Origin: a virus
DNA length: 52,359 nucleotides
Strand: one strand, 5' to 3'
Virus record (IMG/VR): IMGVR_UViG_3300027365_000018
Coordinates: 1-52,359 of that record
Under the pieces are notes generated by a model. That model saw only the letters and a program-made list of their open reading frames with translations, did not search any database and had not been told where the DNA came from. Shown in pieces: positions 1-52,359 of the stretch. The position numbers and the translations under genes were made by a program. Positions within the stretch are counted from its first letter, which is position 1, and each line of letters opens with the position of its first letter.

Positions 1-530
1 ATTACGACATGTCGCTGGCGATTCAGTGGCTCTATCTCATCGAGAACGCCACGATGGACAGCCAGACCGCCACGGGTCAGGGCAACGTCAACGGCTCGGC
101 AGCGCTCAATGTCGATGATGCGACGGTTGCCCAGGCCACATACCGAGGCATCGTCGGGCTCTGGGGCAACGTCTGGCAGTGGATTGACGGTGTGCGCACA
201 CTAAATAGTGTGATCGAGCGGCGCAGCTACAACGGTGCGTGGACCAGCACTGGCGAGAGCGTGCCGAATGGTGGTTCGACGCAGTACCCAATCACGTTCC
301 GCGCGACCGGTGATGAGTCATGGATTGCCAACACATACAGCACTGCCAACGACTCAACGGCGACGTTGCCTGACTACCGCTACTGGCGCGGGTCCGGGGA
401 GTATTACCCCTGCGTCGGCGGCAACTGGAGCATTGGCGCGAATGCCGGGCTCTGGGCAGTGTACTGCCCCAACGCCGCCTCGTACTCCTACTCGAGCATC
501 GGAAGCCGTCTCGCGAGGGTGGTGTCATGA
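1..530 (+). CDS. C-terminal part of DGR-diversified receptor-binding (tail fibre) protein
   Basis: The gene is open at the left edge; codons start at position 3 and no start codon is needed there. The protein has the C-type-lectin/FGE-like features usual in DGR target proteins, including a GLWGNVWQWIDG segment near residue 50 and a final segment rich in Tyr, Ser, Asn and Trp. The last ~37 residues are encoded by the variable repeat at 407-517. Family knowledge says such a fold displays variable residues on a receptor-binding surface, so this is probably the distal tail-fibre tip. The stop TGA (528-530) overlaps the avd start. The N-terminal part is probably the tail-fibre gene leaving the right edge, but direct end-to-end joining is out of frame, so bases are missing between the ends. 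Confidence 0.85.
   Translation, partial: YDMSLAIQWLYLIENATMDSQTATGQGNVNGSAALNVDDATVAQATYRGIVGLWGNVWQWIDGVRTLNSVIERRSYNGAWTSTGESVPNGGSTQYPITFRATGDESWIANTYSTANDSTATLPDYRYWRGSGEYYPCVGGNWSIGANAGLWAVYCPNAASYSYSSIGSRLARVVS
407..517 (+). repeat. DGR variable repeat (VR)
   Basis: This 111-bp segment at the 3' end of the target gene aligns without gaps to 956-1066 (offset 549). There are nine mismatches, at 412, 433, 462, 468, 469, 483, 489, 492 and 496. Every one is opposite an adenine in the template copy (A to G, T, T, C, C, T, T, T, G). They change eight residues: Tyr to Cys, Asn to Ile, Tyr, Pro, Tyr, Tyr and Ser, and Thr to Ser. The last 21 bp (497-517) are identical to the template and GC-rich, as expected for the initiation-of-mutagenic-homing end. 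Confidence 0.97.
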
Positions 531-551
531 GTCATGGCGCCATGAGTCATG
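526..551 (+). promoter_or_regulatory. Inverted repeat just after VR (possible DGR target-recognition hairpin)
   Basis: A 26-nt inverted repeat centred on GGCGCC, with 12 of 13 pairs matching (G531/G546 is the one mismatch), begins nine bases after the VR ends. In the Bordetella phage DGR a hairpin/cruciform at the equivalent place is needed for efficient retrohoming; assigning that role here is inference. It also spans the stop codon of the target gene and the start of avd, so it could affect translational coupling. Confidence 0.6.
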
Positions 552-925
552 GAGTCGCGGCCGATAGGCCGCGCTCCCAGCTGCCGCCGATCGAGGCGCT
601 GCTGGTCAAGCTCGAGGAGCTCGACGACTACTCGCACATCGCGCTGCGCCAGTACCCCAAGCACGAGCGCCACCTGCTGGCGGCCGAGACGCGGGCCAGC
701 CTCGAGACGCTGCTGCGTCTGGCCATCGCCGCCTGGAAGCACTACCACAAGAAGACCACGCTGCGCGATCTCGACATCGAGGTCGCAGTGCTGCGCCATC
801 GCGTGCGAAAGGCCCAGCGGATGCGCTACATCACCCCGGCTCGCTACAAGGTGTGGGCGGGCCACATCGACGAGCTCGGCCGTATGGTTGGCGGCTGGAT
901 TCGTCACGAAAAGCACAAGCACTGA
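527..925 (+). CDS. avd: DGR accessory variability determinant (Avd-like)
   Basis: The 132-residue protein is highly basic and predicted all-helical (segments about 18-38, 43-68, 74-95 and 100-130), matching the size and four-helix form of Avd proteins. These form a pentameric barrel that binds the reverse transcriptase and template RNA. Its place between target gene and template repeat is typical for DGRs. The start at 527 overlaps the target stop (ATGA); an in-frame ATG at 542 repeats the same 11 bases and is an alternative start. The assignment rests on size, charge and context rather than on a catalytic motif. Confidence 0.85.
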   Translation: MSHGAMSHGVAADRPRSQLPPIEALLVKLEELDDYSHIALRQYPKHERHLLAAETRASLETLLRLAIAAWKHYHKKTTLRDLDIEVAVLRHRVRKAQRMRYITPARYKVWAGHIDELGRMVGGWIRHEKHKH

Positions 926-955
926 GCAGCATGGGCATCCGCTCACTTCGACGTT

Positions 956-1066
956 CCCCTACGTCGGCGGCAACTGGAGCAATGGCGCGAATGCCGGGCT
1001 CTGGGCAGTGAACTGCAACAACGCCGCCTCGAACTCCAACACGAACATCGGAAGCCGTCTCGCGAG
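956..1066 (+). repeat. DGR template repeat (TR)
   Basis: This invariant copy of the VR lies between avd and the reverse transcriptase, outside any convincing gene. Read in the VR frame it is rich in AAY (Asn) codons, the codon class that adenine mutagenesis turns into the widest set of residues without making stops. It should be transcribed with flanking sequence as the template RNA. After position 1066 the sequence diverges from the VR flank, so the mutagenic end is at 1046-1066. Confidence 0.96.
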
Positions 1067-1215
1067 CGACCGCAACGGCCAGAAGCGCCGGGCTCACGGG
1101 CCCGGCGACAGCGCCTTATCCCTCGGGGCGGGTGTCCTCGCCGCAAGGCGAAACATCAACATGGCGCGGCGGCCGCCGGTGGCTGCGCCCCATTCATCTG
1201 CAGTAAGGGCATGAC
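1067..1215 (+). other. TR-to-RT spacer of the DGR
   Basis: No gene is seen in these 149 bases. The stretch contains a GC-rich inverted repeat near 1088-1106 (CCGGGCTC/GGGCCCGG). In studied DGRs the spacer 3' of the TR is a structured part of the template RNA that binds RT and Avd and primes cDNA synthesis; that role is inferred here from position. Confidence 0.5.
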
Positions 1216-2247
1216 GTGCCAACGCTGTACGACAGCATTATCGATTTCGACAACCTGGTGACGGCGTACCACGCCGCGCGAAAGGGCAAGCGCTACCGCC
1301 CGGAGGTGGTGCGCTATGCTGCCAACCTCGAAGAGCGCCTGATCAATCTGCACAACCACCTGGTGTGGCAGAGCTGGCGGCCCTCGCCGCCCCGCGAGTT
1401 CACGGTTCTCGAGCCCAAGATGCGCCAGATCCAGGCGCCGCCGTTCGAGGACCGCATCGTGCATCACGCCCTGGTCGATCTGGTCGAGCCGATGTTCGAA
1501 CGCCGCTTCATTCATCACAGCTACGCCTGCCGTCGCGGCAAGGGCACGCACGCGGCGATTCTCGCCCTGCAGAAGATGCTTCGTCGCTGCCGACGCCAGT
1601 GGGGCGCCGTCTATGTAGTGCAGGCCGACGTGCGGCAATTCTTCGCCAGCATCGATCATGACGCCGCCATGGCCAGCGTGGCCCGGGTGATCGACTGCCC
1701 GCGCACCCTGGCGCTGTGGCGCACGATCCTGAGCGGCTACGGCCACGAGGACGGCATCGGTCTGCCGGTGGGCGCGCTGACCAGCCAGCTGACCGCCAAC
1801 ATCACCCTCGACGGCGTCGATCACGAGATGACCGACGGCCACGGCGCGGGGCGTTACCTGCGCTACATGGACGACATCATCATCCTCTGCCCGAGCAAGG
1901 CCGAGGCCTGGAAGCGTTTCGAGCAGCTCGGCGAGGCGCTGGCCCGCCGCGGGCTCTCGCTCAATCCCAAGAGCCAGGTTCGGCCGGCCAGCGCCGGCGT
2001 GGACTGGTGCGGGTATCGCACCTGGTCCACCCACATTCTGCCGCGCAAGCGCAACGTGCGGCGGTTTCGTATCCGGTTGCAACAACTCCAGCGCCGCTAT
2101 GCCGCCGGCGAGGCGACGCTCGACGAGGTGAAACAGCAAGTGCATTGCCTGCTGGCCTACACCCAGCACTGTGATGCCTGGCGCACCACGACCAGCATCC
2201 TGAATCAGCTCACTCTGCACCGCGAGGTAGACCATGCAGATCATTGA
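1216..2247 (+). CDS. DGR-type reverse transcriptase
   Basis: The 343-residue RT copies the TR RNA with errors at adenines. Visible motifs are a motif-A segment QADVRQFFASID (residues ~136-147), the DGR-type motif GLPVGALTSQ (~178-187) in place of the SPxxSP-type motif of group II intron RTs, and catalytic YMDD in RYMDDIIIL (~216-224). There is no maturase or endonuclease domain, as usual for DGR RTs. The start is GTG with an AAGG-type ribosome site just upstream. The stop lies 14 bases inside the next gene, so the two are translationally coupled. Confidence 0.95.
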   Translation: MPTLYDSIIDFDNLVTAYHAARKGKRYRPEVVRYAANLEERLINLHNHLVWQSWRPSPPREFTVLEPKMRQIQAPPFEDRIVHHALVDLVEPMFERRFIHHSYACRRGKGTHAAILALQKMLRRCRRQWGAVYVVQADVRQFFASIDHDAAMASVARVIDCPRTLALWRTILSGYGHEDGIGLPVGALTSQLTANITLDGVDHEMTDGHGAGRYLRYMDDIIILCPSKAEAWKRFEQLGEALARRGLSLNPKSQVRPASAGVDWCGYRTWSTHILPRKRNVRRFRIRLQQLQRRYAAGEATLDEVKQQVHCLLAYTQHCDAWRTTTSILNQLTLHREVDHADH

Positions 2248-39657: not shown

Positions 39658-40239
39658 ATGGCACACCGATACGACTGGGAGGCGATCGAGCTCGACTACC
39701 GCACCGGCCGATACAGCCTCGCGCAACTGTCCGAACGCCACGGCCCCAACCGAGCCTCGATCAGCAAGAAGGCGACCCGGGAGGGCTGGGCCAAGGATCT
39801 GACCGCGCCGGTGGCGCAGCGGACCCGCGAGAAGCTCAGCCGGCCGGAATCCGCGCCGCTCGACCTGCCAGAATCTGACGTGATCGAGCAGGTGGCGAGC
39901 GAGAACGCCGACATTGCGCGTGGCCATCGTCGCCTGCTGGGCAACTACCGCAAGATTGCCGACCGGTTCATCACCCAGCTCGGCGACCAACTCGACCGCG
40001 GCAAGCGAGAAGTGCAGCTCGCCAACGGCGACGTCATGGAGATCGATCTCGACCTCGAGTACATCGGCAAGTGCATGGGCCACGGCACCCAGGCGCTGGA
40101 GCGGGTCATCAAGATGGAGCGTCAGAGCTACCGGCTGGATGCCGAGGAGGGCGACGAGCCGCCGGAGCGCAACCTGAGTGACGACGAGATCGAACAGCGC
40201 ATCGAGGCGCTGCAGCGGAAGGCGGGGCGGAATGCGTGA
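39658..40239 (+). CDS. Terminase small subunit
   Basis: The 193-residue protein has an N-terminal helix-turn-helix (WEAIELDYRTGRYSLAQLSERHGPNRASISKKATREGW, about 6-43) for recognising the packaging site, followed by a helical oligomerisation region (85-150). It immediately precedes and overlaps the large-subunit gene (TGA within the GTG start). Family assignment rests on HTH, length and context. Confidence 0.85.
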   Translation: MAHRYDWEAIELDYRTGRYSLAQLSERHGPNRASISKKATREGWAKDLTAPVAQRTREKLSRPESAPLDLPESDVIEQVASENADIARGHRRLLGNYRKIADRFITQLGDQLDRGKREVQLANGDVMEIDLDLEYIGKCMGHGTQALERVIKMERQSYRLDAEEGDEPPERNLSDDEIEQRIEALQRKAGRNA

Positions 40240-41903
40240 CGCTCACCACCGCCGAGAAGCGCGCCTACCTGGCGCTGCTTGAAGAGCAGGAGCGCCGCCG
40301 CCGCTACAACCTGATCGACCAGCTATTCCCCGAAGACGGCACCCTCAGCCGCCACAACTACGCCAAGCACCTCGAGTTCTTCCGCGCCGGGGCTATCCAC
40401 AAGGAACGGCTGTTCATGGCCGGCAACCGTTGCGTCACGCCATGGACATTCATTGAAACGGCGTCTGGTTCGGCCCGCGCCGCAGAAGCGCTGTTCGGCT
40501 GTGCTGGTAATCTTCGGGCGTGGGCTGATGGATCTGAACGTGATGTTCGACCTGTAGACGCACACCTGGTGGGCATTGAGCCAGCGTTTCGCGTGGTTCT
40601 GGACAGCGGTCGGTTTTTCGATTGCTCCCGTAAGCACCGGGTATTGACCGACGAGGGGTGGCTTTCTCTCGACCAGTTAGTGTCGCGCGCAGATGGTCTG
40701 CATTGGTCGCATACAGCTGGAGGTTATCAGGCCAGTTGTGTCGCGGGTGGTTATCTCGATGATCGACCACTTCCTCCGTGGTCAGATAGCGCCCAAGGAC
40801 AACTTCCATCACCAAGCGGTGCTCGAACACATAGCCGCTTGGCGCTTTCGCGTGAGGATGCAGAGGCGCGAACACCTCGACATATCCGTGTTTGTCAACG
40901 CGGCGGCCACCCCGCCAGCTTTGATGACCGTCACCGTGTCGAGGCCCTGTCCGAGCCGTTTTCAGCTGCAGCGACCGACAGCGACGTTCTACCGCTGACC
41001 TGGACACACCGAGCGTTTCGGCAGCTTGCGCTTGCGTCAGATGCTCAACCTCAATCAGGTGGCGAAGCTCGACATCATCAAGCCGCTTCGCATGTAGACG
41101 GCCTGCCGGGTTCGCTATTCCACGTCGCCGCAGGTAGGCCTGCAGGGATGCCCGGGTCAGACCCAGAGAATCAGCGATCCGATAGGTCGGCTCGCCTGTT
41201 TCAATGCGTTGACGTATTTCCGGGAAGTGCTGGTCGATTGGGGATTTTCTACCCATCACGTATTCCTCGACTGGTAGGTGGAGAAACAATAGCGGCAATA
41301 GTTCCCATTGGTTTCCAGCCAATAATAGACGCTCATGTTCCCGGCCTCAACAACTACCGGGCAGCGGGCGTCTATCACCACAACTGCGGGAAAACCATCG
41401 CTGGCGGCGCTGAAATCGCCTACCACATGACTGGCCGCTACCCAGAGTGGTGGGAAGGCAGGCGGTTTGACCGCCCGATCAACGCCCTGGCCGCCGGGGA
41501 CACCAGCCAGACCACGCGCGACATCATCCAGAAGAAGCTGCTGGGAGGGCTGTGGGATACCGAGGAGTTCGGCACCGGCCTGATCCCCCGTGCGCTGCTG
41601 GGCAAGCCGACGCCTGCCCGGGGCGTGGCCAATCTCTACGAGGAAATCAGCGTAAAGCACGCCTCCGGCGGCTGGTCCCGGCTGATGCTTCGCAGCTACG
41701 ACCAGGGCCGGCGCATCTTCCAGGGCACCGAGCAGGACGTGGTGTGGCTGGACGAAGAAGTCCCGAAGGACGTCTATGACGAGGCGCTGATCCGCACCAT
41801 GACGACCCACGGCATCGTGATCATGACGTTCACGCCGCTCTCGGGCCTGACCGAGCTGGTGGTGTCGTTCCTCGAGTCGAAACACGAACAGGAGTCGGTA
41901 TGA
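40236..41903 (+). CDS. Terminase large subunit, ATPase half, interrupted by an intein
   Basis: The 555-codon frame encodes 65 extein residues, an intein of 318 (40431-41384) and 172 more extein residues. Spliced, the product (about 237 residues) has Walker A GNRCGKT, Walker B DVVWLDEE and the coupling motif MTFTPLSG. The frame stops after the ATPase; the nuclease part is in a separate gene from 42184. It starts with GTG overlapping terS and ends in TATGA with the 95-codon gene. The ATPase powers DNA translocation into the procapsid, so splicing must restore the P-loop. Confidence 0.92.
   Translation: MTLTTAEKRAYLALLEEQERRRRYNLIDQLFPEDGTLSRHNYAKHLEFFRAGAIHKERLFMAGNRCVTPWTFIETASGSARAAEALFGCAGNLRAWADGSERDVRPVDAHLVGIEPAFRVVLDSGRFFDCSRKHRVLTDEGWLSLDQLVSRADGLHWSHTAGGYQASCVAGGYLDDRPLPPWSDSAQGQLPSPSGARTHSRLALSREDAEARTPRHIRVCQRGGHPASFDDRHRVEALSEPFSAAATDSDVLPLTWTHRAFRQLALASDAQPQSGGEARHHQAASHVDGLPGSLFHVAAGRPAGMPGSDPENQRSDRSARLFQCVDVFPGSAGRLGIFYPSRIPRLVGGETIAAIVPIGFQPIIDAHVPGLNNYRAAGVYHHNCGKTIAGGAEIAYHMTGRYPEWWEGRRFDRPINALAAGDTSQTTRDIIQKKLLGGLWDTEEFGTGLIPRALLGKPTPARGVANLYEEISVKHASGGWSRLMLRSYDQGRRIFQGTEQDVVWLDEEVPKDVYDEALIRTMTTHGIVIMTFTPLSGLTELVVSFLESKHEQESV
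40431..41384 (+). other. Intein 1 (318 codons) in the Walker A motif
   Basis: The intein starts with Cys after GNR and ends HHN before the +1 Cys of CGKT. N-terminal splicing block: CVTPWTFIET; block B-like: DCSRKHRVLTDEGWLSL (about residues 62-80); C-terminal block: IVPIGFQPIIDAHVPGLNNYRAAGVYHHN. The middle (roughly 40690-41270) has no intein or endonuclease similarity in the sense frame, because it carries an HNH gene on the other strand. Splicing residues (Cys1, final Asn, +1 Cys) are all present. Confidence 0.93.
40450..41256 (-). CDS. HNH endonuclease encoded antisense to intein 1
   Basis: The protein (268 residues from ATG 41256, with GAGGA upstream) has two N-terminal helix-turn-helix-like parts (about 10-45 and 62-88) and an HNH domain: YVFEHRLVMEVVLGRYLTTEEVVDHRDNHPRHNWPDNLQLYATNADH (about 145-190). 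Reading continues to 40450 across the DNA that encodes the N-terminal splicing domain of the intein in the other direction. It should cut intein-less terminase alleles and drive homing. A frame 22 codons longer (to 41322) exists but has a weaker start. Confidence 0.85.
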   Translation of the reverse strand: MGRKSPIDQHFPEIRQRIETGEPTYRIADSLGLTRASLQAYLRRRGIANPAGRLHAKRLDDVELRHLIEVEHLTQAQAAETLGVSRSAVERRCRSLQLKTARTGPRHGDGHQSWRGGRRVDKHGYVEVFAPLHPHAKAPSGYVFEHRLVMEVVLGRYLTTEEVVDHRDNHPRHNWPDNLQLYATNADHLRATLTGREKATPRRSIPGAYGSNRKTDRCPEPRETLAQCPPGVRLQVEHHVQIHQPTPEDYQHSRTALLRRGPNQTPFQ

Positions 41904-42187
41904 CCGCCCATCCCATCCCCGCCGATGTCGGCGCTGCGATCGCCGAAGGCCTGGCCGAGATCCAGCGCGACGCCAAGCGTGCAATCTCCCGCATCGAGAT
42001 GCCGCCGGCCTCTGCCGCCTACGTGGGCCGCACCACCAGCATGGCCAAGCGCCTCGCCGATACCGTGCGTGCCCGAGGCATCCAGTCCGGCACGCTGGCC
42101 CTGCGCATCGCCCGTCAGGTGGACCCGCACATCAGGCCCGGGCAGCGCATGGTGATCGCCGGGGCCGAGTTCACGGTGGCCGAATGA
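41900..42187 (+). CDS. Small protein inserted between terminase halves
   Basis: The 95-residue protein lies between the terminase ATPase and nuclease genes with ATGA overlaps on both sides. It is helical at the N-terminus (VGAAIAEGLAEIQRDAKRAISRIEM), then mixed (VRARGIQSGTLALRIARQVDPHIRPGQRMVIAGAEFTV). No intein motif and no Cys are present. No family is recognised. Its exact placement suggests it is made in step with both halves, perhaps to bridge or regulate them; that is inference. Confidence 0.65.
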   Translation: MTAHPIPADVGAAIAEGLAEIQRDAKRAISRIEMPPASAAYVGRTTSMAKRLADTVRARGIQSGTLALRIARQVDPHIRPGQRMVIAGAEFTVAE

Positions 42188-43869
42188 GCCGCTATGTCGT
42201 GCAAGCCGGTTGGCGAGACGCCCCACACCTCAGCCAGCAGGACATCGACGACATGAGCCGCTCGATCTCGCCGCATCAGCTCAAGGCGCGCATGGACGGC
42301 ACGCCCACCCTGGGCGCCGGGGCCATCTACCCGGTGCCGGAGGAGGACATCGTCGTCGAACCGTTCCAGATTCCCGAGTGGTGGCCGCGGCTGTATGGCC
42401 TCGACGTCGGCTGGAACAAGACCGCCGCCATCTGGGGCGCGCTGGACCGCGACACCGACACGCTCTACCTGAACAGCGAGCACTACCGGGGCCAGGCCGA
42501 GGCCGCCGTGCACGCCAAGGCAATAAGGATGCGCGGCGAGTGGATGCCCGGCGTCATCGACTCTGCCGCCCGGGGCCGCAGTCAGGTGGACGGCAAGAGC
42601 CTGTTTTCGCTGTACGAGGACGAGGGGCTGCACCTGCACAACGCCAACAAGGCCGTCGAGGCCGGGTTGATGGCGGTGCTCGAGCGGCTCAGTACCGGCC
42701 GGCTCAAGGTGTTCTCCACCCTGCAGCACTGGCTCGGCGAATACCGCCTGTACCGGCGCGACGAGAAGGGCCGCGTCGTGAAGGAAAACGACCACTGCCT
42801 GCACCCCGATACGCAAGTCATCACCCGGCAGGGGAGACAACGTATTTCTGACCTCGTTGGGTCAACTGGCGAGGTATTGACGCAGGGTGGGCGATGGACT
42901 TCGTATCGGAACTGCCGGATGACAGCGCGAAACGAGAAGGTCGTTACTGTGTCGTTCGAGGACGGGAGCCGGGTGACTTGCACGCCAGATCATCGCTTCT
43001 TGACGCCTGATGGGTGGGTGGAGGCGCGCGATATGGCTGGCCTGGAATGCTATAATGCAGTAACGCAAAGCATCCATGAGAGCCAGCCATGCAAGTCACC
43101 ATCATCTCCGACACCATCCAAGAGTTTGAAGGGCGGCGTTATTACCTGTGCGGCGCTTATTTCCAGAGCGATGGTGTCCGGCTACACCGCCAGGTATGGG
43201 AGCGCGCGAATGGAAAAGTGGTGCCGGAGGGTTTCCATGTACACCACAAGGATCATGACCGCAGCAACAACCAGCCGGGCAATCTCGAGCTGGTGTCAGC
43301 GTCTGACCACATGCGGCACCACCATGAAGGGCATGATCGGGGCGTTCCTGCAGAGGCAATCGAGGCTGCCAGGGCTTGGCATGGCAGTGACGCCGGGCGC
43401 GACTGGCATCGCCAGCATTACGAGCGAACCAAGGGCAAGCTCCACGTGCGCCGATCCTTCGTCTGTGAGCAGTGCGGCACCGAGTTCACGGCTCTGGATC
43501 GAGGCATCAACAGGTTCTGCTCCAATAGCTGCAAGACCAAATGGCGGAAAGAGGCGGGGCTGGATGACGAGGTTCGTCAGTGCGTTGAGTGCAAGGCGGA
43601 GTTCACGGCCAACAAGTATTCCCGCAAGCAAACATGCAGCCGCAAGTGCGGTGGTGCGCTGTCTGGGCGTAAGCGACGCCGGGAGGAGTGATGTCTACTG
43701 CCTGACGGTGCCTGAAACGGCCGCCTTTGCCGTGGAAGGCGGCGTGGTTGTTCACAACTGCATGGACGCCACCCGTTATCTGGTCATGGGGCTGCAGCAC
43801 GCCACCACGCGACCCATCGAACGCCATGCCACATCGGCCCGCCCGGGCGATCTGACGACAGGATACTGA
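42184..43869 (+). CDS. Terminase large subunit, nuclease half, interrupted by an intein
   Basis: The 561-codon frame encodes 204 extein residues, an intein of 321 (42796-43758) and 36 extein residues. Spliced (240 residues) it has RNase-H-type nuclease motifs: first Asp in YGLDVGWNKT (~73), VIDSAARGRSQVDG (~120) and the last Asp in DHCMDATRYLVMG. The first ~50 residues (RYVVQAGWRDAPHLS...YPVPEEDI) normally follow the ATPase domain in one chain. It cuts concatemeric DNA at the packaging site. ATGA overlap links it to the 95-codon gene. Confidence 0.92.
   Translation: MSRYVVQAGWRDAPHLSQQDIDDMSRSISPHQLKARMDGTPTLGAGAIYPVPEEDIVVEPFQIPEWWPRLYGLDVGWNKTAAIWGALDRDTDTLYLNSEHYRGQAEAAVHAKAIRMRGEWMPGVIDSAARGRSQVDGKSLFSLYEDEGLHLHNANKAVEAGLMAVLERLSTGRLKVFSTLQHWLGEYRLYRRDEKGRVVKENDHCLHPDTQVITRQGRQRISDLVGSTGEVLTQGGRWTSYRNCRMTARNEKVVTVSFEDGSRVTCTPDHRFLTPDGWVEARDMAGLECYNAVTQSIHESQPCKSPSSPTPSKSLKGGVITCAALISRAMVSGYTARYGSARMEKWCRRVSMYTTRIMTAATTSRAISSWCQRLTTCGTTMKGMIGAFLQRQSRLPGLGMAVTPGATGIASITSEPRASSTCADPSSVSSAAPSSRLWIEASTGSAPIAARPNGGKRRGWMTRFVSALSARRSSRPTSIPASKHAAASAVVRCLGVSDAGRSDVYCLTVPETAAFAVEGGVVVHNCMDATRYLVMGLQHATTRPIERHATSARPGDLTTGY
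43048..43056 (+). promoter_or_regulatory. Extended -10 promoter for the nested HNH gene
   Basis: A perfect extended -10, TGCTATAAT, lies 33 bases before the HNH start and inside intein 2. It could express the endonuclease separately from late terminase transcription. No clear -35 box is seen, as common for extended -10 promoters. Confidence 0.5.
43089..43691 (+). CDS. HNH endonuclease nested in intein 2 in another frame
   Basis: The 200-residue protein has an HNH core (VRLHRQVWERANGKVVPEGFHVHHKDHDRSNNQPGNLELVSASDH, about 30-75). Two C-terminal zinc-finger-like units follow (CEQCGTEF...CSNSC; CVECKAEF...CSRKC, about 127-190), ending in a basic tail. It is out of frame with the intein and has its own start and stop. 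Its stop (43689-43691) falls exactly where the intein's C-terminal block begins. It should promote homing of the intein. Confidence 0.85.
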   Translation: MQVTIISDTIQEFEGRRYYLCGAYFQSDGVRLHRQVWERANGKVVPEGFHVHHKDHDRSNNQPGNLELVSASDHMRHHHEGHDRGVPAEAIEAARAWHGSDAGRDWHRQHYERTKGKLHVRRSFVCEQCGTEFTALDRGINRFCSNSCKTKWRKEAGLDDEVRQCVECKAEFTANKYSRKQTCSRKCGGALSGRKRRREE

Positions 43870-49359: not shown

Positions 49360-51149
49360 CCGACTCCGCCTACATCCGCCTCGGCGGCGGCATCGACCTC
49401 GTCACGCCGCCGGAGAAACTCTCGCCCGGGGCCGCCATCTACGCCGTCAACTACGAGTGCCCGATCACCGGCGGGTACCGACGCATCGACGGCTACACCC
49501 AGCTCGGCCCGGTCGTGCCCGGCGAGGGGCCGCTGCTCGGCGTGGTGACGTTCAACGACAAGATCCACGCCGTGCGCAAGGACACCGGCGCCGACAGCGC
49601 GACGCTCTACGTGCTGAACACCGGCACCAATGCCTGGGACGTGGTCGGCACCGCCGGGGCGCTCACCAACGGCCGCCACGAGTTCGTCGAGGGCAACGTC
49701 AAGGGCCTGGAGAAGGACCGCGCCCTGTACGGCGTCGGCGGGGGCAAGCCGTTCCAGCTGATGGCCGAGCAGCCGGCGTCGCAGACGTTCGACTCGCTGG
49801 TCGAGCTGACCGCCTACCTGAAAGGCTCGCCGCCCGAGGGCGTCAACTACAGCGCCTCCGGCGACACCTTCACGATCAGCGACGAGGACGGCCGGGCGAT
49901 CACCGGCATCAGCGTCACCGACAAGACGGACGCCTCGCTGACCACCGCGACCGACGTGGCGGCCAATAGCAATGGCACCTCGCAGACCATCGACTTCTCG
50001 AGCGTGACGCTCAATGACGTCGGCTACATCAAGTTCACGGTCGGCAGCGAGCCGCAGACGGTGCTGACCATCCCCGAGCTGGCCAGCCCGTTCACCGAGA
50101 TCACCGCGGCGCAGGCCGGCGCGATCTACATCGCCCTGCACCGCAACCACCTGTTTCTGGGCTACGAGGCCGGCAGCGTCCAGCACTCCAACCTTGGCAA
50201 TCCGATGGCATTCAACGCCGCCACCGGCGGAGCCGGGGAGATCGCCGTGGGGCAGACCGTCACTGGCCTGGTGCCCGGCACCGGCGGCACGCTGCACATC
50301 ATCTGCCGCGACAGCGTGAAGACGCTCTACGGCACGTCGGCGGCCGACTGGCAGCTCAAGGTCACGGTCCCCAACTCCGGCGGCCGGCCGTACAGCGCCC
50401 AGTCGCTGATGCAGCCGTATTTCGTTGCCGAGCGGGGTATCGCCTCGCTCGAGGCCACCAACAACTACGGCGACTTCCGGCCGATGCAGCCCGGCGCCCG
50501 GGTCGAGCCGCTGTTCACCGAGAGCGGCTATGCCACCCGCGTGGTCGCCACCGGAATCAGCAAGAAGCGCGCCCAGTACCGCGTGTGGTTCGACGACGGC
50601 ACCGGCATCTACATGAGCCCGGCGGGCATCACCCGCGTGGACTTCCCCGACCAGGTGGTGGTCGCCCACACCGGCGAGCTGACCGATGGCGAGGAGCAAC
50701 TGCTGATCGGCGACGACGCCGGCTTCGTGCACCGCCTGGGCAACGGCGCCACCTCGTTCAACGGCGCCGACATCGATGCCTTCCTGACGCTGGCCTATAA
50801 CGACCTCGGCAAGCCCAACGTGCGCAAGCGCTACCGCCGGGTGTTCTGGGACCTGCGCTCCGGTTCCAACGCCAGCATCTCGATCAAGGCCGACCTCGAC
50901 TATGGCGGCACCGAGTCCGCCTCGGCACGTCGCGAGTTCCTCGACTTCCTGCAGGGCGGCGGGCTGTGGGATGTCGCCAAGTGGGGCGAGTTCAGTTGGT
51001 CCGTTCCCACGCTCGGCCAGGAGCCCATGGATCTGACCGGCACCGGGGTCTCGATCAACTTCGCCATCTACTCGACGGGCAGCGACCCCAGTCATGAGCT
51101 GCTCGGCTACGACCTGCATTTCGACGTGAGGAGACGCCGCCGTGGCTAA
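49356..51149 (+). CDS. Tail tube/stabilisation protein (putative)
   Basis: The 597-residue protein is β-rich with a repetitive, propeller-like look (e.g. GYRRIDGYTQLGPVV, FNDKIHAVRKDTG, LVPGTGGTLHIICRDSVKTLYG). It follows the adaptor and precedes the tail fibre, the place of P22 gp10-type or tail tubular B proteins in podoviruses. The C-terminal segment (KPNVRKRYRRVFWDLRSGSNASISIKADLDYGG) is β-rich. Function is inferred from size, composition and order. Confidence 0.7.
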   Translation: MTDSAYIRLGGGIDLVTPPEKLSPGAAIYAVNYECPITGGYRRIDGYTQLGPVVPGEGPLLGVVTFNDKIHAVRKDTGADSATLYVLNTGTNAWDVVGTAGALTNGRHEFVEGNVKGLEKDRALYGVGGGKPFQLMAEQPASQTFDSLVELTAYLKGSPPEGVNYSASGDTFTISDEDGRAITGISVTDKTDASLTTATDVAANSNGTSQTIDFSSVTLNDVGYIKFTVGSEPQTVLTIPELASPFTEITAAQAGAIYIALHRNHLFLGYEAGSVQHSNLGNPMAFNAATGGAGEIAVGQTVTGLVPGTGGTLHIICRDSVKTLYGTSAADWQLKVTVPNSGGRPYSAQSLMQPYFVAERGIASLEATNNYGDFRPMQPGARVEPLFTESGYATRVVATGISKKRAQYRVWFDDGTGIYMSPAGITRVDFPDQVVVAHTGELTDGEEQLLIGDDAGFVHRLGNGATSFNGADIDAFLTLAYNDLGKPNVRKRYRRVFWDLRSGSNASISIKADLDYGGTESASARREFLDFLQGGGLWDVAKWGEFSWSVPTLGQEPMDLTGTGVSINFAIYSTGSDPSHELLGYDLHFDVRRRRRG

Positions 51150-52359
51150 CTCGTACTACGACAACTCGGATGCCGGCCAGCGCTTCCAGCCCGGCACGAC
51201 CGCCAAGGGCAGCGAGGTCGATGCCAAGTTCGATCAGGTGCAGGCCGGGTTCGACGGCACCGAGACCGACACCAATCGCTCGATCAAGCTGCCGAGCGAT
51301 GCCGGCGTCAGCCAGGAGATCACCGAAACGAAGCTCGAGCGGCGGGGCATGGTCGTGGGCTTCGACGCCAATGGCGACCTGGTGCTGAAAACGCCAGGCA
51401 ATTGGCGCGGCGACTGGGCGACCGGCACGGTCTACTACGTCAACGACGTGGTGCGCGACCCGGCGACCGGCGACATCTACTGGGCGCCGCTCAAGCATAC
51501 GTCGAACACCATCGCCAACGATGCCGCCGCCGGCAATCTCGACAAGACCATCGACGTCGCCGAGATCAAGGCGCTGCGTACCGAGGCCCACCACTGGGCC
51601 AGCTACGCCGAGGGCCAGCCGGTGCCCGAGGGCGACGGCACCGAGGAGTCGGCCTACAGCTACTCGCAGAAAGCTGCTGCCGACCGACAGCAGACCAGCG
51701 CAGACCGCACGGCCACCGGCCAGGATCGAACAGCCGTCGCCAACGACAAGCAGACGGTTCTCGGCTACAAGCAGGACGCTGCCACCTCGGCCGCCGCCGC
51801 CGCCGCCAGCTATGACAGCTTTGATGACCGCTACCTAGGCACCAAGGCCAGCGACCCGGCGACCGACAACGATGGGAATGCCCTGCTGGAAGGCGCGCTG
51901 TATTGGAACACGACCTCCAAGCACATGCGCGTCTATGACGGCTCCGCCTGGCAGATCGCCTATGTGCCCATCGGGCAGTATGTGGCTGGTCCCGCATCTG
52001 CCATGGATGGGCACGTTGCGCTGTTCGATGGCGCATCGGGCAAGATCATCAAGGACACGGGGGAGACGCTGACTCGCGCCCTAACCCAAACCCTCACCGC
52101 CCCCTCCCAGGTCGCCGATGTGGCCGACTACACCATCGACGCCTCCGCCACTAGCCGCCAGACCGGGGGCTCGATCGCCTCGTTCGTGGTGACGTGGTGG
52201 GACGGCGTTACCGAAACTATCGCTGCCTCCGGCGGGGCGGCAACGCTGTCCCGTGCCGTCGATCAACCGGTCGGCGGGATAGTGTCGGCGACGGTCCATG
52301 CCGTGGATGATGTGGGCAATATCTCGGCGCGCGAGACCGTGACCGCTGACGTGGTGGCC
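51142..52359 (+). CDS. Tail fibre protein, N-terminal part (runs off the window)
   Basis: A GTG start at 51142 overlaps the upstream gene by eight bases. The 406 codons present encode MANSYYDNSDAGQRFQPGTT..., a virion-binding N-terminus, then a helical Ala/Gln-rich coiled coil (about 160-225) and a small domain with LYWNTTSKHMRVYDGSAWQ (about 253-271), common in tail fibres. A fibronectin-like β region follows (about 330-400). The frame is open at the right edge. It is probably the front of the DGR-diversified gene whose end lies at 1-530. Confidence 0.85.
   Translation, partial: MANSYYDNSDAGQRFQPGTTAKGSEVDAKFDQVQAGFDGTETDTNRSIKLPSDAGVSQEITETKLERRGMVVGFDANGDLVLKTPGNWRGDWATGTVYYVNDVVRDPATGDIYWAPLKHTSNTIANDAAAGNLDKTIDVAEIKALRTEAHHWASYAEGQPVPEGDGTEESAYSYSQKAAADRQQTSADRTATGQDRTAVANDKQTVLGYKQDAATSAAAAAASYDSFDDRYLGTKASDPATDNDGNALLEGALYWNTTSKHMRVYDGSAWQIAYVPIGQYVAGPASAMDGHVALFDGASGKIIKDTGETLTRALTQTLTAPSQVADVADYTIDASATSRQTGGSIASFVVTWWDGVTETIAASGGAATLSRAVDQPVGGIVSATVHAVDDVGNISARETVTADVVA

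What the first reader, a model, noticed from the sequence alone, without database searches (positions are those of the whole stretch)
407..2247. Complete DGR with a fully adenine-specific mutation record
The VR (407-517) and TR (956-1066) align over 111 bp with nine differences. All nine are at TR adenines, giving A to T five times, A to C twice and A to G twice. They change eight residues of a lectin-like tail-fibre tip. An avd-like gene and a DGR-type RT (LPVGALTSQ, YMDD) are both intact. Seen in sequence; that this alters receptor choice follows from the Bordetella phage DGR.
Basis: partly seen in the sequence, partly recalled or inferred. Interest (0 to 1): 0.85.

Follow-up and report, generated by a model that had tools for sequence, protein, structure and literature searches.

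The report
Phage tail-protein diversity-generating retroelement
This virus of bacteria carries a complete, recognisable copy of a known gadget (a diversity-generating retroelement) that rewrites the tip of a tail protein at chosen letters. It is a good example, and its close relatives show the gadget at work in nature, but the kind of system is already well known.

Summary
Avd (527-925) and a DGR-type RT (1216-2247) are intact. The element is a BPP-1-type phage DGR (target-avd-TR-RT). Added here: (1) the target is homologous to the solved DGR protein TaqVP (C-type lectin fold), and the VR falls on TaqVP's VR. (2) A 7-bp/GATA DNA hairpin lies 38 bp past the VR (556-573), inside avd; similar hairpins follow the VR in 50 of 51 related elements, while the published loop type follows the TR in none. 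(4) The window's two ends lie in the same target gene, about 0.74 kb of which is missing, so 'complete' holds for the machinery, not for the target gene. It is a new member of a known kind. A minor new point: a second hairpin-loop class (CRA/CRAA) follows RT phylogeny in relatives.

The parts
3..530 (+). 3' part (175 codons) of the target gene: C-terminal C-type-lectin (FGE-like) domain of a tail protein
   Evidence: open at the 5' end; PHROG 5302 tail protein 2.9e-21; profile match to TaqVP 5vf4
407..517 (+). variable repeat (VR)
   Evidence: nine differences from TR, all at TR adenines
497..517 (+). last 21 nt of VR, identical to TR 1046-1066; position of the IMH
   Evidence: the IMH role is inferred from BPP-1
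556..573 (.). DNA hairpin/cruciform CGCGGCC-GATA-GGCCGCG (7-bp stem, GRNA loop), 38 bp past the VR, inside avd codons
   Evidence: consensus from PMC3240598; chance in this stretch about 3e-4
527..925 (+). avd, accessory variability determinant (start codon overlaps the target's stop codon)
956..1066 (+). template repeat (TR), 26 adenines, nine AAY codons in the VR frame
1067..1215 (+). spacer of the DGR RNA with conserved, covarying stems
   Evidence: 9 of 35 predicted pairs keep pairing through changes on both sides
1216..2247 (+). DGR reverse transcriptase (LPVGALTSQ, YMDD)
51142..52359 (+). 5' part (406 codons) of the same target gene: tail-fibre N-terminal region, open at the window's right end
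   Evidence: collinear with one single ORF in L002 and with L029, L032 and L044

Best explanation
A BPP-1-type diversity-generating retroelement of a temperate tailed phage. The avd-TR-spacer RNA is copied by RT with Avd into cDNA that carries random bases opposite template adenines. This cDNA replaces the VR at the 3' end of a tail-protein gene, helped by the 3' end of the VR (IMH) and the DNA hairpin just past it. The outcome is a lectin-fold tip with a fixed scaffold and a randomised binding surface. The TR is not overwritten, plausibly because it lacks the hairpin. Shown: anatomy, adenine-only record, TaqVP homology, hairpin after VR and not after TR, VR-only diversification in near-identical relatives. 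Inferred: activity in this phage, and the effect on host attachment.
For: Nine of nine VR/TR differences at A. RT and Avd intact; RT 38% identical to Bordetella BPP-1 brt. In L002 (RT 81% identical) the TR differs from the window's TR at 17 sites, yet each VR follows its own TR at non-A sites (0 of 85 and 1 of 87 mismatches, against 12-15 with the other TR), so retrohoming has happened separately in each line. L004 vs L005: 900 bp upstream, the 455-bp gap and the TR are identical, but the VR differs at 11 sites, all template A; L004 vs L013 9, L008 vs L011 19 (17 at A), L044 vs L057 17 (15 at A). Over 51 family pairs 577 of 599 differences are at A. GRNA hairpin after VR in 30 of 51 and a hairpin of any loop in 50 of 51; GRNA hairpin after TR in 0 of 51. 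Target profile hits TaqVP only; Foldseek on the L002 domain model gives TaqVP as the only significant fold, E 1e-9.
Against: No reads or second isolate of this very phage could be examined, so activity here is not shown. The target gene is cut by the contig ends. The structure model is weak over the VR (pLDDT below 50). The 51-pair tally was selected with at least 70% A bias, so its percentage is inflated; the unselected window and L002 pairs are not.
Confidence: 0.97

Rival explanations
1. A DGR that is intact in sequence but no longer active in this phage: the VR records old retrohoming events and now drifts.
For: Only one genome of this phage is available, and one snapshot cannot date the last event.
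Against: Zero non-adenine differences in 85 sites between VR and TR, although the TRs of this family differ at 17 of 111 sites between window and L002, means the VR was rewritten recently. RT and Avd are open. Near-identical relatives carry several VR versions.
Confidence: 0.1
2. Ordinary duplication with divergence or gene conversion between two repeats, without a retroelement.
For: Two similar 111-nt repeats in one locus.
Against: Adenine-only polarity (P 6e-7), adjacent DGR-type RT and Avd, and the same pattern in 51 related pairs.
Confidence: 0.005
3. The VR diversifies a protein that does not decide host attachment (for example another virion or moron surface protein).
For: No host-range data; the N-terminal part matches only loosely annotated tail-fibre families.
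Against: PHROG tail families at both ends; the gene lies directly after virion structural genes, an arrangement kept in L029, L032 and L044.
Confidence: 0.08

Closest known systems
Bordetella phage BPP-1 DGR (mtd-avd-TR-brt)
   Same: Gene order; RT 38% identical over 81%; Avd; adenine-only VR/TR record; C-terminal VR in a phage tail protein; GRNA-loop hairpin after the VR (PMC3240598).
   Different: Target belongs with TaqVP, not Mtd, by sequence; the hairpin lies 38 bp past the VR within avd (published range 4-34 bp); no IMH/IMH* mismatches inside the repeat.
Thermus aquaticus prophage DGR, variable protein TaqVP (PDB 5vf4)
   Same: Only PDB relative of the target domain by sequence and by fold; VR at the extreme C-terminus; order target-avd-TR (PMC6328139).
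   Different: TaqVP is a single-domain protein; here the lectin domain ends a longer tail-fibre-like protein (632 aa in L002).
IMG/VR phages L002, L004-L007, L029, L032, L038, L044, L057
   Same: Same cassette with 67-81% RT identity; L032 and L057 also share a terminase part (70%), and L029, L032 and L044 share structural genes with the window.
   Different: Different VRs; the flanking structural genes of L002 are unlike the window's, so the cassette is found in different phage backgrounds.

Membership tests
Diversity-generating retroelement | RT of the DGR type next to the repeats | tested here: met
   PHROG 1423 3e-118, Pfam RVT_1 2e-24, LPVGALTSQ and YMDD, 38% identity to BPP-1 brt
Diversity-generating retroelement | TR/VR pair that differs at template adenines | tested here: met
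   9 of 9 at A, 0 of 85 elsewhere
Diversity-generating retroelement | accessory protein Avd | tested here: met
   Pfam bAvd 1.5e-24, PHROG 3206 6e-33
Diversity-generating retroelement | VR in the coding sequence of a ligand-binding-fold protein (C-type lectin) | tested here: met
   profile and fold match to TaqVP; the model is weak over the VR itself
Diversity-generating retroelement | hairpin/cruciform downstream of VR, absent downstream of TR | tested here: met
   556-573, GATA loop; family: GRNA hairpin after VR 30/51, after TR 0/51
Diversity-generating retroelement | IMH at the VR end and a similar but not identical IMH* at the TR end | tested here: inconclusive
   last 21 nt of VR and TR identical, then abrupt divergence; no internal IMH/IMH* mismatch seen
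Diversity-generating retroelement | mutagenic retrohoming activity in this phage | not testable with these tools
   needs reads or an experiment; shown by comparison only in relatives

The most novel reading that the evidence does not exclude
The hairpin that marks the VR comes in two loop classes in this family, the published GRNA tetraloop (30 of 51, the window included) and a CRA triloop or CRAA tetraloop (20 of 51). The loop class follows the RT tree (2-3 changes against about 15 in shuffles), which would fit a loop-recognition code shared by hairpin and RT/Avd and could keep DGRs in one cell apart.
Probability: 0.25. Interest if true: 0.5.

Novelty: new member of a known kind. Interest (0 to 1): 0.3.

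Why it matters
It is a clean example of a phage DGR on a TaqVP-type tail protein, with wild relatives that differ almost only in the VR. This set of near-identical phages lets one read which variants persist in nature, and the hairpin survey (50 of 51 after VR, two loop classes) gives a testable idea of what separates target from template. The system itself has been known since BPP-1, and more than 30,000 DGRs are catalogued (PMC8144416).

Tried and rejected
A palindrome at the target/avd junction (CATGAGTCATGGCGCCATGAGTCATG, about 526-551) was considered as the homing hairpin and dropped, because it is not kept in L004-type relatives while the GRNA hairpin is. Rfam found nothing. The AlphaFold model of the window's own 175 residues failed (pLDDT 42) and was not used. 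A sequence search of Avd against PDB found no relative. The genome scan gave one distant hit only, and no named phage or plasmid shares the locus at DNA level beyond short pieces. 'TR erosion' (L032 TR differs from L044 at 9 sites, 7 at A, with identical flanks; L006 TR 3' half equals its VR) was looked at: L006 may be an assembly chimera and L032 is a single case, so no claim is made. A first comparison of L032 with L044 was out of register and was replaced.

Full report
Observation. They differ at nine positions, all adenine in the copy at 956-1066: five to T, two to C, two to G; none of the 85 non-adenine template positions differs. With 26 adenines in 111 positions the chance of nine of nine is 6e-7. 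Read in the target's frame, eight residues change, and nine of the template codons are AAY, which cannot mutate at A to a stop. The flanking avd (527-925) and RT (1216-2247) are open and match their families strongly. There is no second VR in the window on either strand.

The window as a genome. It is a 52-kb virus record with integrase, S24-type repressor, DnaB-type helicase, terminase, portal and major head genes, so a temperate tailed phage. The target ORF is open at the left end and a tail-fibre-like ORF is open at the right end. In L002, a relative with 81% RT identity, one single 632-codon ORF matches the window's right end (52174-52359) and left end (1 onward) with about 742 bp between them; L029, L032 and L044 show the same spacing and the same upstream structural genes. 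The missing length also fits the reading frame: the right-hand frame ends on a codon and the left-hand frame starts at base 3, which needs a gap of 3n+1. So the window is very probably a near-complete genome opened inside the target gene, with about 0.74 kb missing. That is an inference from relatives.

What the target is. A profile of the target's last 325 residues from 19 relatives finds one chain in the whole PDB: TaqVP, the variable protein of a Thermus aquaticus prophage DGR (5vf4, E 6.7e-15); the third matched stretch, profile 288-333, falls on TaqVP 337-382, and TaqVP's variable region is 341-381 (PMC6328139). Foldseek with the L002 domain model gives TaqVP as the only significant solved fold (E 1e-9). 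The model itself is weak over the VR, so surface exposure of the variable residues is taken from TaqVP, where it was seen in the crystal. PHROG calls both ends of the gene tail proteins.

Evidence for retrohoming. In L002 the TR differs from the window's TR at 17 of 111 sites. If VR and TR were independent sequences, each VR would not track its own TR. Yet window VR has 0 of 85 non-A mismatches to its own TR and 15 of 87 to L002's TR, and L002 VR has 1 of 87 to its own and 12 of 85 to the window's. So each VR was rewritten from its own TR after the two lines parted. More directly, three groups of near-identical phages from different metagenomes differ in the VR and little elsewhere: L004/L005/L013 (gap 0/455, TR 0/111, VR 9-13, all at template A; L004/L005 also 0/900 upstream), L008/L010/L011 (gap 0/433, TR 0-1/120, VR 14-21, 13-20 of them at A), L044/L057 (gap 0/437, TR 0/111, VR 17, 15 at A). 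Across the L004 group 19 of 24 template adenines vary and 0 of 87 other positions.

Cis elements. Guo et al. (PMC3240598) showed that BPP-1 homing needs a hairpin or cruciform just past the VR, 7-10 bp GC-rich stem with a GRNA loop. The window has CGCGGCC-GATA-GGCCGCG at 556-573, 38 bp past the VR and within the avd coding sequence; a random stretch of this composition gives one as good in 3 of 10,000 trials. In 51 distinct related TR/VR pairs a perfect stem of 6 bp or more follows the VR in 50, mostly 30-43 bp away, with changed stem sequences that still pair. The GRNA loop type follows the VR in 30 pairs and the TR in none. In 20 pairs the loop is CGA, CAA or CGAA instead. On an RT tree the loop class needs 2-3 changes against about 15 for shuffled labels, so it is inherited with the RT; whether the RT or Avd reads the loop is not known. 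GRA triloops are on record for archaeal DGRs (PMC4372165); I did not find CRA loops in the papers held. The last 18-22 nt of most repeats carry no changes, as expected for the homing-initiation end. The spacer after the TR carries three stems with covarying pairs, as expected for a structured DGR RNA.

Mutation spectrum. In the family pairs A goes to G 272, T 193, C 112 times (pairs were selected with at least 70% A bias, and near-copies count repeatedly). In E. coli the BPP-1 enzyme gave C, G and A misincorporation of about 59, 26 and 14% (PMC12875486), i.e. A>G, A>C, A>T. More A>T here may reflect selection (AAC to TAC gives Tyr) as well as the enzyme; the data cannot tell.

Verdict. An ordinary but well-supported phage DGR: a new member of a known kind. 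More than 30,000 DGRs have been catalogued from metagenomes, with three mainly phage-borne lineages and wide activity (PMC8144416), so this one adds an example, a natural series of VR variants in relatives, and a small new point on hairpin loops.

Noticed in passing
window 1 and 52359: Both contig ends lie in the same target gene; relatives with that gene whole imply about 742-745 bp missing between them, in frame. The window is probably a near-complete genome opened at this gene.
   Followed up: yes
window 40236-43869: The terminase large subunit carries two apparent inteins, one at the Walker A motif (GNR/CGKT) with an antisense HTH/HNH ORF (40450-41322, -) inside, one before CMDATRY with a frame-shifted HNH ORF (43089-43691) inside. 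Relatives L128 and L129 lack both.
   Followed up: partly
window 41900-42187: The terminase is encoded in two ORFs separated by a 95-codon ORF; relatives L128 and L129 keep the same split with a related small ORF. Function unknown.
   Followed up: partly
L031 2276-2395 and 3436-3555 (same contig as L026): Two extra target paralogues far from the RT carry VRs that match the L026 TR at every non-A position (12 and 15 A-site changes): a multi-target DGR.
   Followed up: partly
L032 TR against L044 and L057 TR: The TR of L032 has lost adenines (7 of 9 differences at A, most equal to its own VR) although the flanks are identical; L006 TR 3' half equals its VR. Template overwriting or assembly chimeras.
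   Followed up: partly
L012, L094, L097, L100-L127 (20 elements): VR hairpins with CGA, CAA or CGAA loops instead of GRNA, clustered on the RT tree.
   Followed up: yes
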